Shown one piece after another: positions 17,844 through 29,952 of a stretch of DNA of 29,952 nucleotides. A program made the translations under genes and the position numbers. This stretch comes from a virus, in the IMG/VR virus record IMGVR_UViG_3300021356_000116, positions 1 to 29,952 of that record; one strand, written 5' to 3'. Below the pieces are notes generated by a model. The model was not told the origin of the DNA. It made no database searches and worked only from the letters and a program-made list of their open reading frames with translations. Position 1 is the stretch's first letter. Each line of letters starts with the position of its first letter.

Positions 17844-18707
17844 ATGGCAACCACTTTGAAATCACTAAAGACTCCTCTCCGCTATCCTGGTGGCAAGAGT
17901 CGCGCTTTGTCAAAACTTTTTCAGTATATCCCTGATCTTAAAGATTACAAAGAATATCGTGAACCGTTTCTTGGTGGTGGTAGCGTAGCATTAGAAGTGT
18001 CTAAGAGGTATCCTCGTCTAGACATTTGGGTCAATGATTTATACGAACCTCTCTATAACTTCTGGAGAGAACTACAGGACAATGGTAATGAAATTAAGAA
18101 CATCCTGCTCCAACTTAAACAAAGGCACCCTGACCCCACTTCCGCTAAGAAACTTTTCCTGGACGCTAAAGAATATCTTTCAGGGTCTCAGGCAACGACT
18201 AAGTTCCCACCGTATACTGAAAACATATGGCGTGCTGTTTCTTTCTACGTTGTTAATAAGTGCAGTTTTTCGGGTCTTACTGAGTCATCCTCCTTCTCAA
18301 AACAAGCAAGTGATTCAAACTTCTCCCTTGCAGGTATTGAACGACTAACAGATTATCAGAAGTTGATTGGCAATTGGAAAATTACTAACAAGTCTTATGA
18401 ACAACTCCTTACTGATGACAAAGACGCCTTTACGTACCTTGATCCCCCCTATGAGATCGGATCCAATCTATATGGTAAGCGTGGAAACATGCACAAAGGA
18501 TTTAACCATGACCATTTTGCTGTCAAGTGTGATCGGTTTATTGGTCCTCAACTTATATCTTATAATTCGTCTCAACTCATTCGTGAGAGGTTTGAAGGGT
18601 GGACAGCAGCAGAATTTGCACACACCTACACGATGAGGAGCGTGGGGAGTTATAATACAGATCAAGCAGACCGCAAGGAACTCGTCCTTTTCAATTATGA
18701 AGTGTGA
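17844..18707 (+). CDS. dam: D12-class N6-adenine DNA methyltransferase (Dam-like)
   Basis: Methylates adenine in DNA, probably GATC by analogy with Dam. The 287 residues are close to T4 and E. coli Dam (259 and 278). Motifs are TPLRYPGGKSR at 10-20 (AdoMet binding, motif X), REPFLGGGSVALEV near 40-53 (motif I), NDLYEPLYNFW and the catalytic D200-P-P-Y203 (motif IV) in TYLDPPYEIGSNLYG. No restriction enzyme is next to it, so it is an orphan methylase, possibly for defence against host nucleases or for marking phage DNA. It follows the oxygenase by two bases, and its end overlaps a small gene by 11 bases. Base composition is like its neighbours. Confidence 0.93.
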   Translation: MATTLKSLKTPLRYPGGKSRALSKLFQYIPDLKDYKEYREPFLGGGSVALEVSKRYPRLDIWVNDLYEPLYNFWRELQDNGNEIKNILLQLKQRHPDPTSAKKLFLDAKEYLSGSQATTKFPPYTENIWRAVSFYVVNKCSFSGLTESSSFSKQASDSNFSLAGIERLTDYQKLIGNWKITNKSYEQLLTDDKDAFTYLDPPYEIGSNLYGKRGNMHKGFNHDHFAVKCDRFIGPQLISYNSSQLIRERFEGWTAAEFAHTYTMRSVGSYNTDQADRKELVLFNYEV

Positions 18708-27657: not shown

Positions 27658-27943
27658 GTTTATTTTGTTTACCAAGGACTCTTGTGGTCCTTGTGGTCTG
27701 GTAAAGCGATACTTCAATGCTCTCAATGATGAGCGTACTGAACTCATCGAAGAAGTTCATCTTGAAGATTTCAGTGATGAACCAATTCCAGAAGAGAACA
27801 TTGCCATTGCTAAAAAGTATGGCATCACTGCCACACCTGTCCTGATTGTTGTTGATGGAGAAGGAGAACTACTTGAAACTTACTCAAGCGGTATGCCAAT
27901 CACTCAGAACATTCGTAAACTCTGGGCGAAATACGAAGTATAA
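27647..27943 (+). CDS. Thioredoxin-like protein
   Basis: 98 residues starting at ATG 27647, chosen because AAGGAGA lies just upstream and it gives the normal thioredoxin N-terminal strand (MKTRFILFTKDSCGPC). An ATG at 27623 would add eight unlikely residues. The redox site is C13-G-P-C16, the canonical thioredoxin motif, and the cis-proline segment is ATPVLIVVD. The length is short for thioredoxin, so alpha-helix trimming is likely. In cyanophages such proteins may reduce ribonucleotide reductase or regulate host carbon enzymes; the partner is unknown. Its stop codon TAA is inside the late promoter at 27939. Confidence 0.9.
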   Translation: MKTRFILFTKDSCGPCGLVKRYFNALNDERTELIEEVHLEDFSDEPIPEENIAIAKKYGITATPVLIVVDGEGELLETYSSGMPITQNIRKLWAKYEV

Positions 27944-27946
27944 ATA
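27939..27946 (+). promoter_or_regulatory. T4-type late promoter for the 27984 gene
   Basis: Exact TATAAATA, overlapping the thioredoxin stop codon. The start site should be about 27951-27953, inside the left arm of the hairpin at 27949-27977, leaving a leader of about 32 bases. Confidence 0.8.
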
Positions 27947-27948
27947 TG

Positions 27949-27977
27949 ACCTCCCTCTAAATAGTTAGACGGGAGGT
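27949..27977 (+). promoter_or_regulatory. Hairpin hiding the ribosome-binding site of the 27984 gene
   Basis: ACCTCCC at 27949-27955 pairs perfectly with GGGAGGT at 27971-27977, with a 15-base loop, followed by TTT. The right arm contains the Shine-Dalgarno GGGAGG, seven bases before the ATG. Read-through RNA would hide the site; RNA from the late promoter lacks most of the left arm and would leave it open. Its T-run could also make it a weak terminator. Confidence 0.75.
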
Positions 27978-27983
27978 TTTCTT

Positions 27984-29129
27984 ATGGCATTTAATAGTAT
28001 ACCTAAAAACTCCTCTGAGATGAGAGCTCTTGCAGGGAGCAGTATTGATAAGAAGTACAGAGGTCCAATCATTCATTTCTATAACCATATTAAGAAGCAC
28101 TATGGTATAGAAGATGCATTGGCATTTAATCCTAAAACTAACGCAGGTAAGAGTTGTAAAATCATGCGTGGATTGAAGGGCACTGTCGATGTAAGCAAGA
28201 TTAAAAAACAAGTTGGACTAGATTCCAATTTCAAAATTACCTGGGGCGACGGTAGCAGAGGTAATCGTGGCACAGGAAACAGGGGTAATTTATTTGAAGG
28301 ACAATTGGAGGAAGGATTAAATGATTGGATTGAAGAAGGTGATTACACTAACAATCAATACAAAGGATTTATCGATGACTTGATTAATTATTATGATTTG
28401 GAAGATTGTCAAGTAGTAAAAGTAATTGCTGAGGGTGGTGAAAACAAAAAGAGACCACTGAAATATGAAAATGGAAACTGGAAGGTTGGTGATGCTGATG
28501 GATCACACTATGATATTGGAGCTACAGTTACAGATCTTACACTAACAACTAAGAAGGGATCTAAAACAAGTGTCATATATCTTTCTTTGAAGACTAGTGG
28601 CACAACTACTATGTCTAACCTAGGTGTCAAGAAAATTTTTACTAAAGAAGATATACAGAGTGGTTCTATTAAAACTGATGTGGGACTGAAAGTTCTAGAA
28701 ACATTTGGTATTAACAACGATAGGTTTTGCAGAATTTTCAATGAAGCATACAATGGTAAAGTTAGGAGTGGTGGCAATGATCCCAGTCCGCAATTCAACA
28801 GAACACTATTGCAAGGTATGATTCGTGGTTCTATCGGATATGGATATCACTACACTCATAAGCAAGGAAGTAAGATCAAGAACTTCCCCATGACTAAGCA
28901 ATTATGTGATCGTGCTACTAGAGTCAGTTCGGTAATTGTCCACTATGGTGGTAAGACTGGTACGGGGCAGCGTGTTGACATCACGGTCAAAACACCAGTC
29001 ATGGAATTGAAGTTTAACATTCGTGACACAAGCGGCAGTTCGGACCCATGGCCTGATAAACTACAGTCAGCATACAAGTTCAACGGCGAAGCGGTGTTCA
29101 GCATTCCTGAGGACGGGTACGTAGACTGA
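27984..29129 (+). CDS. Late protein of unknown function, possible PD-(D/E)xK-like nuclease
   Basis: 381 residues. The start MAFNSIPKNSSEMRALAGS is preceded by a strong but structured Shine-Dalgarno and a late promoter. Near residues 58-110 the protein is basic and Gly/Arg rich (GDGSRGNRGTGNRGNLFEG). A segment D177-IGATVTDLTL, then VIYLSLK203-TSGTTTMSNLG, has the spacing of a nuclease core (Asp, then about 25 residues on a beta strand ending in x-x-Lys, here S-L-K in place of D/E-x-K), followed by a Thr/Gly-rich loop like those binding DNA. That resemblance is my reading and unproven. The C-terminal third is beta rich. It is coupled to the ligase-like gene after it (TGATG overlap). Its late expression suggests a packaged or DNA-processing role. 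Confidence 0.65.
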   Translation: MAFNSIPKNSSEMRALAGSSIDKKYRGPIIHFYNHIKKHYGIEDALAFNPKTNAGKSCKIMRGLKGTVDVSKIKKQVGLDSNFKITWGDGSRGNRGTGNRGNLFEGQLEEGLNDWIEEGDYTNNQYKGFIDDLINYYDLEDCQVVKVIAEGGENKKRPLKYENGNWKVGDADGSHYDIGATVTDLTLTTKKGSKTSVIYLSLKTSGTTTMSNLGVKKIFTKEDIQSGSIKTDVGLKVLETFGINNDRFCRIFNEAYNGKVRSGGNDPSPQFNRTLLQGMIRGSIGYGYHYTHKQGSKIKNFPMTKQLCDRATRVSSVIVHYGGKTGTGQRVDITVKTPVMELKFNIRDTSGSSDPWPDKLQSAYKFNGEAVFSIPEDGYVD

Positions 29130-29952
29130 TGGCAAATATTAAACAGCTCAAGCACCTAGAGCACTTGGAAGATGAGATGCTGAACTACGGCGTCGAAGGG
29201 TGTAAAGCAGCAGTCTCTTTCTTGAAAGAACTCCGCAAGATGCTGGGACAGCAAGAGAGTAGTGGTTTCATGCAGACCAAGTGGGACGGTGCTCCTTCTG
29301 TTATCTGTGGCATGGATCCCCTTGCAGATATCTTTTTTGTTGGAACAAAGTCTGTCTTTAATAAAGACACACCAAAGATCTGCTATTCAGAAGAAGATGT
29401 GGACTCTATGTATGATGGAGACTTAGCAGAAAAACTCAAGTTCTCTTATCGATACTTCAGTAAACTTGGTATCAAGGGAGTTATTCAGGGAGACCTTTTA
29501 TTTACATCGGACATTAGAAAGGAGACGGTAGATGGCGAACAACTCTACACATTTCGACCAAACACTATTACTTATGGCATCCCTGTTAACCACGATATTG
29601 GTAAAAAAGCTGGCAGAGCAAAGATCGGAGTAGTATTTCATACTCATTATCAGGGAACAGATCTTCCTACAATGCAAGCAATGGCAGGAGCACCTGTTGA
29701 TACTTACAATGACATTCCTGAAGTATTGATTGTCAGGAACGATACTCCTATGCATAAGGTTGGGTTCTCTCGTGCAGAGATGACAAAGTTTGATAATTAT
29801 ATTTCTAAGATCGAACGTATGTGTCAGATCTGTGGTCCTTTCCTTGATGAATTGGTGGATGCAACTGGCACCACAGGCGATAAGAAATTTCATATTGCAT
29901 CATACCTGAAGCAGTTCTTTAATAATGAGATTAAGAATGCTCGTAGTATTTC
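29129..29952 (+). CDS. Ligase/nucleotidyltransferase-like protein, 3' end missing
   Basis: Open to the edge of the window with at least 274 codons. The TGATG overlap couples it to the preceding gene. The N-terminal helices (1-45) precede K51-W-D-G54 in MQTKWDGAPSV, which fits the KxDG motif I of covalent nucleotidyltransferases (DNA/RNA ligases and capping enzymes). IFFVGTKSVF at about 68-77 resembles motif III, and GVIQGDLLF near 117-125 resembles motif IV (with Asp for the usual Glu). Motif V is not clear. I believe similar cyanophage proteins are annotated only as domains of unknown function. If active it would use Lys51 to form an AMP adduct. Substrate and true length cannot be told from this window. 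Confidence 0.7.
   Translation, partial: MANIKQLKHLEHLEDEMLNYGVEGCKAAVSFLKELRKMLGQQESSGFMQTKWDGAPSVICGMDPLADIFFVGTKSVFNKDTPKICYSEEDVDSMYDGDLAEKLKFSYRYFSKLGIKGVIQGDLLFTSDIRKETVDGEQLYTFRPNTITYGIPVNHDIGKKAGRAKIGVVFHTHYQGTDLPTMQAMAGAPVDTYNDIPEVLIVRNDTPMHKVGFSRAEMTKFDNYISKIERMCQICGPFLDELVDATGTTGDKKFHIASYLKQFFNNEIKNARSI

What the first reader, a model, noticed from the sequence alone, without database searches (positions are those of the whole stretch)
29129..29952. KxDG ligase-like protein expressed as a late gene pair
K51-W-D-G, a motif III-like FFVGTKS and a motif IV-like IQGDLLF suggest a covalent nucleotidyltransferase unlike the known T4 ligases (gp30, Rnl1, Rnl2). Ligases are normally early; a late, operon-coupled one next to a possible nuclease could act during packaging, in the virion or at entry. 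Motif IV has Asp where Glu is usual and motif V is not seen, so the activity may differ.
Basis: partly seen in the sequence, partly recalled or inferred. Interest (0 to 1): 0.6.

Follow-up and report, generated by a model that had tools for sequence, protein, structure and literature searches.

The report
Phage ligase-like enzyme with cutting partner
A protein family of unknown function found in nearly all ocean cyanobacteria-infecting T4-like phages has, by predicted structure and fully conserved active-site residues, the catalytic core of a DNA/RNA-joining enzyme, and it sits in a cassette between a restriction-enzyme-like nuclease and another nucleotide-transferring enzyme; these phages were thought to lack any ligase.

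Summary
The gene (29129 to beyond the window end) belongs to Pfam DUF6267, function unknown. The window cuts off its last third. IQGDLLF is motif III, not IV. In 133 diverse homologues K51, D53, G54, K74, D122, H171, E369 and K381 are invariant; KxDG is in 365 of 365 loci. The AlphaFold model (pLDDT 91.5) aligns best with RNA and DNA ligases (48 of 50 listed PDB entries; best NgrRnl, Z 8.2), though no sequence search reaches them. It is very probably a divergent covalent nucleotidyltransferase of ligase type, with a 125-200-residue spacer between motifs IIIa and IV and no C-terminal domain. The upstream gene folds like restriction enzymes HinP1I/MspI. The downstream gene is a HIGH-type nucleotidyltransferase, found in 228 of 241 long-form loci and sometimes fused; an orthologue was detected in a phage virion. 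Late-promoter sequences upstream are conserved. Cyanomyoviruses tested lack recognised ligases, but four relatives have DUF6267 plus a gp30-like ligase, so it is not simply a replacement. Activity, substrate and timing are untested.

The parts
29129..29950 (+). DUF6267 gene, first 274 of about 400 codons (3' end beyond the window): ligase-type covalent nucleotidyltransferase core
   Evidence: Pfam PF19782 1.6e-90; full-length model on the 98%-identical L006 copy, pLDDT 91.5; ligase folds by VIA-align
29279..29290 (+). motif I K51-W-D-G, predicted site of covalent nucleotidyl attachment
   Evidence: K, D and G invariant in 133 homologues; KxDG in 365/365 loci
29333..29353 (+). FFVGTKS, motif Ia region, with invariant K74
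   Evidence: position of Arg89 (motif Ia) in RLIG1, PMC11494293, by analogy
29483..29503 (+).
29630..29650 (+). VVFHTHY, motif IIIa, invariant H171, T172 and Y174
   Evidence: RLIG1 also has His in motif IIIa (PMC11494293)
27984..29129 (+). upstream partner (PHROG 8438): restriction-endonuclease-fold protein; its stop codon overlaps the DUF6267 start by one base
   Evidence: model pLDDT 84.4; HinP1I Foldseek E 9e-5, VIA Z 9.7, MspI Z 9.0
28533..28592 (+). predicted nuclease active site D184 ... S201-L-K203 (with E105 at 28296-28298)
   Evidence: conserved in the alignments of 59 and 32 homologues
27939..27946 (+). TATAAATA, T4-type late promoter -10 element
   Evidence: kept at the same place in several nuclease-bearing relatives; consensus NATAAATA in S-PM2, PMC2984593
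27949..27977 (+). terminator-like hairpin ACCTCCC/GGGAGGT plus T-run with CTAAATA (27957-27963) in its loop, just before the nuclease gene
   Evidence: a CTAAATA or NATAAATA element upstream in 49 of 56 loci printed

Best explanation
DUF6267 is a divergent covalent nucleotidyltransferase of the polynucleotide ligase / capping enzyme superfamily and most likely a strand-joining enzyme. Proposed chemistry (inferred): Lys51 takes AMP from ATP or NAD+; motifs Ia, III and IIIa hold the nucleotide; E369 (motif IV) and K381 (motif V) act in metal binding and phosphate transfer; AMP passes to a 5'-phosphate and the nick or end is sealed. It probably works on DNA in a late-expressed cassette: a restriction-endonuclease-fold protein makes or recognises the ends, the ligase-like protein seals or adenylates them, and a HIGH-type nucleotidyltransferase supplies or modifies the nucleotide co-substrate. 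Shown computationally: family, conserved motifs, predicted fold, gene linkage and fusions, late-promoter-like sequences. Not shown: adenylylation, ligation, DNA rather than RNA, timing, complex formation. The covalent-nucleotidyltransferase core alone I put near 0.9; the confidence given is for the whole mechanism as a late DNA-end-joining enzyme.
For: Invariant K51, D53, G54, K74, D122, H171, E369, K381, R385 in 133 sequences. Model pLDDT 91.5, pTM 0.87. VIA-align top rows NgrRnl Z 8.2 (180 residues, 3.7 A), T4 Rnl2 Z 7.3, archaeal RNA ligases, Trl1, DNA ligases; 48 of 50 rows are ligases. RLIG1, a demonstrated KxDG RNA ligase, uses the same set (K73, D75, R89, E174, H195, E240, K253; motif IV-V spacing 13, here 11-14) and also gave NgrRnl as top fold match (PMC11494293). 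HIGH neighbour downstream in 228/241 long-form loci; fusions L201, L203, L204 and S-PM2 591 aa. Upstream REase fold; the DLP6 upstream gene matches a type II restriction enzyme model at 1.7e-12. Late-promoter-like elements.
Against: No sequence or profile search reaches a known ligase. Foldseek against PDB gives no significant hit, and Z about 8 is near the background the tool warns of; the case rests on consistency of the list plus motifs. Superposition of motif residues could not be inspected. Motif V lacks the second Lys of T4 Rnl2's K-x-K. There is no recognised C-terminal OB or RNA-binding domain. DNA versus RNA is undecided: the best fold matches are RNA ligases.
Confidence: 0.55

Rival explanations
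1. It is the missing replicative DNA ligase of cyanomyoviruses, a displaced functional replacement for T4 gp30.
For: No PF01068, PF01653 or PF09414 match in 8 isolated cyanomyoviruses, HTVC008M and Melnitz-1, nor in S-SM1 and further cyanophage-type records, while T4 rings. A review notes that g30 is absent and that distant homologues were not excluded (PMC2984593). The gene lies between gp41 and gp61.
Against: DLP6 and contigs G006, G007 and G008 carry a PF01068 ligase as well as DUF6267, and G006/G007 also a PF09414 RNA ligase. Late-promoter-like control and nuclease linkage do not suit Okazaki sealing. Host LigA could do it.
Confidence: 0.15
2. It is an RNA ligase (repair of tRNA or other RNA), in the manner of RLIG1, T4 Rnl1 or NgrRnl.
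For: Best fold matches are RNA ligases; the motif set resembles RLIG1 including His in motif IIIa.
Against: The partner has a DNA restriction-enzyme fold; no kinase or phosphatase partner was seen; G006 and G007 already have an Rnl2-type ligase.
Confidence: 0.2
3. It is a covalent nucleotidyltransferase that does not ligate: it transfers a nucleotide to DNA/RNA 5' ends, a small molecule or a protein, together with the HIGH-type enzyme.
For: Constant linkage and fusion to a HIGH-type nucleotidyltransferase; no substrate-binding C-terminal domain; unusual motif V; invariant residues outside the ligase motifs (H12, N145, Y149, N265, K340).
Against: The motif set and fold match ligases rather than capping enzymes.
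Confidence: 0.2
4. It is a catalytically dead structural or DNA-binding protein that keeps the fold.
For: No activity shown; a neighbour's orthologue is in a virion (PMC3037559).
Against: All predicted catalytic residues are invariant across 133 sequences of 25-58% identity to the reference.
Confidence: 0.04

Closest known systems
Pfam PF19782 DUF6267 / PHROG 455
   Same: Full-length family match, 304.6 bits on the window part and 422.9 on the complete homologue.
   Different: The families carry no function; assignment to the ligase superfamily is new here as far as the searched library shows (no paper mentions DUF6267).
Naegleria gruberi RNA ligase (PDB 6vt3, 5cot)
   Same: Best structural match, Z 8.2 over 180 residues; motifs I, IV and V in the same order.
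   Different: About 10% identity; NgrRnl is matched mainly over residues 145-339, with the rest unmatched; DUF6267 has a 190-200-residue spacer between IIIa and IV in the long form.
RLIG1 / C12orf29 and the Yasminevirus homologue
   Same: KxDG, acidic motif III, His in motif IIIa, Glu in IV, Lys in V with spacing 13; no separate RNA-binding domain (PMC11494293).
   Different: No sequence similarity found; RLIG1 is a demonstrated RNA ligase; not directly compared in structure here.
T4 Rnl2 and T4 gp30
   Same: Listed fold matches, Z 7.3 (2hvq) and 5.6 (6dt1).
   Different: No Pfam match to PF09414 or PF01068; profile comparison with the T4-clade Rnl2 gave nothing; motif V is K-x-V-x-R; no C-terminal domain; both kinds coexist with DUF6267 in some phages.
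HinP1I / MspI type II restriction endonucleases (upstream partner)
   Same: Predicted fold, HinP1I Foldseek E 9e-5, Z 9.7 over 214 residues.
   Different: 8-14% identity; active site D...S-x-K; no cognate methyltransferase adjacent.

Membership tests
DUF6267 (PF19782) | profile score above the curated cut-off of 27 bits | tested here: met
   304.6 bits
Covalent nucleotidyltransferase superfamily | motif I KxxG with invariant Lys | tested here: met
   K51 133/133, KxDG 365/365
Covalent nucleotidyltransferase superfamily | motifs III, IIIa, IV and V in order, with conserved acidic III, Glu in IV, Lys in V | tested here: met
   D122, H171, E369 and K381 invariant; spacings; IV and V lie beyond the window, in L006. 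Assignment is by order and secondary structure, not by residue superposition
Covalent nucleotidyltransferase superfamily | nucleotidyltransferase fold | tested here: met
   48 of 50 VIA rows are ligases, best Z 8.2; Foldseek alone not significant
Covalent nucleotidyltransferase superfamily | lysyl-nucleotide intermediate | not testable with these tools
   needs protein and labelled ATP/NAD+
Polynucleotide ligase | joins 3'-OH and 5'-phosphate strands | not testable with these tools
   needs an assay
T4 Rnl2 family (PF09414) | profile match | tested here: not met
   no match at E up to 5; hhalign with the T4 clade gave nothing
ATP-dependent DNA ligase (PF01068, gp30) | profile match | tested here: not met
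   no match at E up to 5
T4 Rnl1 family (PF09511) | profile match | tested here: not met
   no Pfam match other than DUF6267 and one weak unrelated hit
NAD+-dependent ligase | adenylation-domain profile PF01653 | tested here: not met
   no match; NAD+ use itself not tested
PD-(D/E)xK restriction-endonuclease fold (upstream gene) | core fold and acidic...x-K active site | tested here: met
   HinP1I/MspI matches; D184, S201 and K203 invariant; cleavage untested

The most novel reading that the evidence does not exclude
A widespread phage 'cut-and-seal' system: a conserved ligase-type enzyme paired with interchangeable restriction-endonuclease-like nucleases and a HIGH-type nucleotidyltransferase, made late and partly packaged in the virion, processing DNA (host, rival or own ends) in a way not described for any phage.
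Probability: 0.25. Interest if true: 0.85.

Novelty: new variant of a known kind. Interest (0 to 1): 0.62.

Why it matters
Cyanomyoviruses are reported to lack gp30 ligase and the T4 host-DNA-degrading nucleases denA, ndd and denB, with 'distant homologues' or 'an un-described method' left open (PMC2984593). This cassette places an unrecognised ligase-type enzyme and a restriction-enzyme-like nuclease side by side in these phages, so both questions become testable on named proteins. It also gives a catalytic hypothesis, with residues to mutate, for a Pfam family of unknown function found in hundreds of sequenced phages and in many marine and freshwater viral contigs, and it may yield a new enzyme for molecular biology.

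Tried and rejected
Sequence routes to a known ligase: phmmer and hmmsearch against PDB sequences gave only coiled-coil or repeat noise from the helical part; NCBIfam and PADLOC gave nothing for DUF6267; hhalign against 30 T4-clade Rnl2 sequences gave nothing, though that alignment is narrow. Foldseek against PDB gave no significant hit. BFVD returned relatives and fusions, with RNA ligases only at E 0.2 or worse. A plain gp30 replacement was weakened by four records holding both. Idea: each phage avoids the target site of its own nuclease. Several phages lack certain 4-base palindromes completely, but the missing sites did not track the nuclease family: CCGG is absent in window, Sf-CH1b and S-RSM4 yet normal in G001 and G005, which carry the same nuclease family. 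Idea: the hairpin with CTAAATA in its loop is a genome-wide module; among 13 sequences only 3 of 47 CTAAATA sites had it, all at this locus. Plain presence of late-promoter words in 1.9 kb upstream is not enriched; only the position just before the nuclease gene is conserved. Expression timing and a virion protein list for DUF6267 were not found in the text of the papers read.

Full report
The window is a fragment of a T4-like cyanomyovirus (IMG/VR virus record, 29,952 bases), closest among named phages to Synechococcus phages Sf-CH1b and S-RSM4. The gene at 29129 is Pfam DUF6267, PHROG 455, both without function. It runs off the window. A complete copy in L006 is 98% identical over the 274 shared residues and is 400 aa long.

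Motifs. In the complete protein the order is K51-W-D-G (I), FFVGTKS (Ia region, K74), IQGDLLF (III, D122), VVFHTHY (IIIa, H171), PEGYVL (IV, E369) and MIKFVNR (V, K381, R385). In 133 diverse homologues these residues are invariant, together with H12, P56, G61, F70, F77, Q120, N145, Y149, T172, Y174, N265, K340, F388 and N392. KxDG is present in all 365 loci collected. Two size classes exist: about 400 aa and about 300 aa. They differ mainly in the IIIa-IV spacer, 191-202 against 125-147 residues, with smaller differences before motif I and between III and IIIa; I-III and IV-V spacings are nearly constant. The protein ends 17-26 residues after motif V, so there is no C-terminal OB or RNA-binding domain.

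Fold. AlphaFold2 on the L006 protein with the 133-row alignment gave pLDDT 91.5 and pTM 0.87. Foldseek against PDB was not significant. VIA-align 2 on the Foldseek candidates put NgrRnl first (6vt3, Z 8.2, 180 residues, 3.7 A), then T4 Rnl2 (Z 7.3), archaeal RNA ligases, fungal Trl1, DNA ligases I, III and IV, and T4 DNA ligase (Z 5.6); only 2 of 50 rows are not ligases. Z about 8 alone would be weak; agreement of the list with invariant motifs in the right order makes the superfamily call strong. Sequence searches do not reach any ligase. A published precedent behaves the same way: RLIG1, shown to be a KxDG RNA ligase, has NgrRnl as its top structural match, lacks the T4 Rnl1 RNA-binding domain, and uses Lys and Asp in I, Arg in Ia, Glu in III, His in IIIa, Glu in IV and Lys in V (PMC11494293). 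The five-motif definition and three-step reaction are in PMC4599027.

Neighbours. Upstream, 27984-29129 overlaps the DUF6267 start by one base. Its model (pLDDT 84.4) matches HinP1I (Foldseek E 9e-5; Z 9.7 over 214 residues) and MspI (Z 9.0), with E105, D184, S201 and K203 invariant. In long-form relatives the upstream place is taken by several sequence families: PHROG 8438 in 48 of 231 loci, a second family in 59 (its DLP6 member matches a type II restriction enzyme model, 1.7e-12), and three more in 30, 8 and 7. Conserved D...(S/E)-x-K patterns are visible in these families, but for the last three nuclease identity is inference from that pattern only. Downstream, a HIGH-type nucleotidyltransferase ('cytidyltransferase', T4-GC190) follows in 228 of 241 long-form loci but only 12 of 66 short-form ones. 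L201 fuses DUF6267 to it; L203 and L204 fuse DUF6267, the HIGH domain and a C-terminal stretch with a GDVKI...EVKS pattern; a S-PM2 record is a 591-aa fusion. T4-GC190 was detected in purified S-SM1 virions (PMC3037559); DUF6267 (T4-GC71) is not named in that text, and the supplementary list could not be read.

Timing. A TATAAATA lies at 27939 and a CTAAATA in the loop of a terminator-like hairpin at 27949-27977, before the nuclease ATG. A CTAAATA or NATAAATA element occurs within 90 nt of the assigned start in 49 of 56 loci printed; six of the seven without it appear to be genes cut by a contig end, where the assigned ATG is internal (my reading of the listing). NATAAATA is the reported late promoter of S-PM2 (PMC2984593). 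This supports late transcription but does not show it. The cassette lies among replication genes (gp43, uvsX, gp41 ... gp61), so read-through is possible.

Is it the missing ligase? Eight isolated cyanomyoviruses, HTVC008M and Melnitz-1 have no PF01068, PF01653 or PF09414 match, while T4 has PF01068 and PF09414. S-SM1 and the other cyanophage-type records are also negative (some are fragments). But DLP6, G006, G007 and G008 have PF01068 plus DUF6267, and G006 and G007 also PF09414. So DUF6267 does something a gp30-like ligase does not, at least there. It could still serve as ligase where none other exists.

Conclusion. The core claim, a covalent nucleotidyltransferase of ligase type in a lineage outside gp30, Rnl1 and Rnl2, I hold at about 0.9. 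That it joins strands and works on DNA within a late cassette I hold at about 0.55. It is a new variant of a known kind: known chemistry and fold, new family, unusual architecture and unusual partners.

Noticed in passing
window 1-29952; also L001, L002, L404, L409-L476: Some 4-base palindromes are completely absent from these phage genomes: CCGG 0 of 21 expected in the window, 0 of 69 in Sf-CH1b, 0 of 82 in S-RSM4; GTAC 0 of 341 in S-SM1; GGCC 0 of 282 in DLP6; TCGA 0 in G005, G013 and G014. Probably restriction avoidance; it did not track the nuclease family.
   Followed up: partly
window 27949-27977: Terminator-like hairpin carrying a late-promoter-like CTAAATA in its loop, 24-30 nt before the nuclease start, conserved in dozens of loci; possibly a combined terminator and late promoter.
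   Followed up: partly
L203 and L204 (Firmicutes MAG contigs): About 930-aa proteins joining DUF6267, a HIGH-type nucleotidyltransferase and a C-terminal domain with a GDVKI...EVKS pattern.
   Followed up: partly
L085:6992-8768 (S-PM2): In NC_006820 the DUF6267 reading frame is split, with its second half joined to the HIGH domain; another S-PM2 entry (A0A0M6VVW4) is a single 591-aa fusion, so the split is probably a sequence error or strain variant.
   Followed up: partly
window 17844-18707: ORF that looks like a Dam-type DNA adenine methylase in the same genome as the restriction-enzyme-like gene (translation; name by eye and by the relatives' annotation).
   Followed up: no
BFVD A0A4Y5JUK8 (Pseudomonas phage PA5oct): A 446-aa uncharacterised jumbo-phage protein is a distant structural match to DUF6267 (E 5.4e-5, 11% identity); the family may extend beyond T4-like phages.
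   Followed up: no
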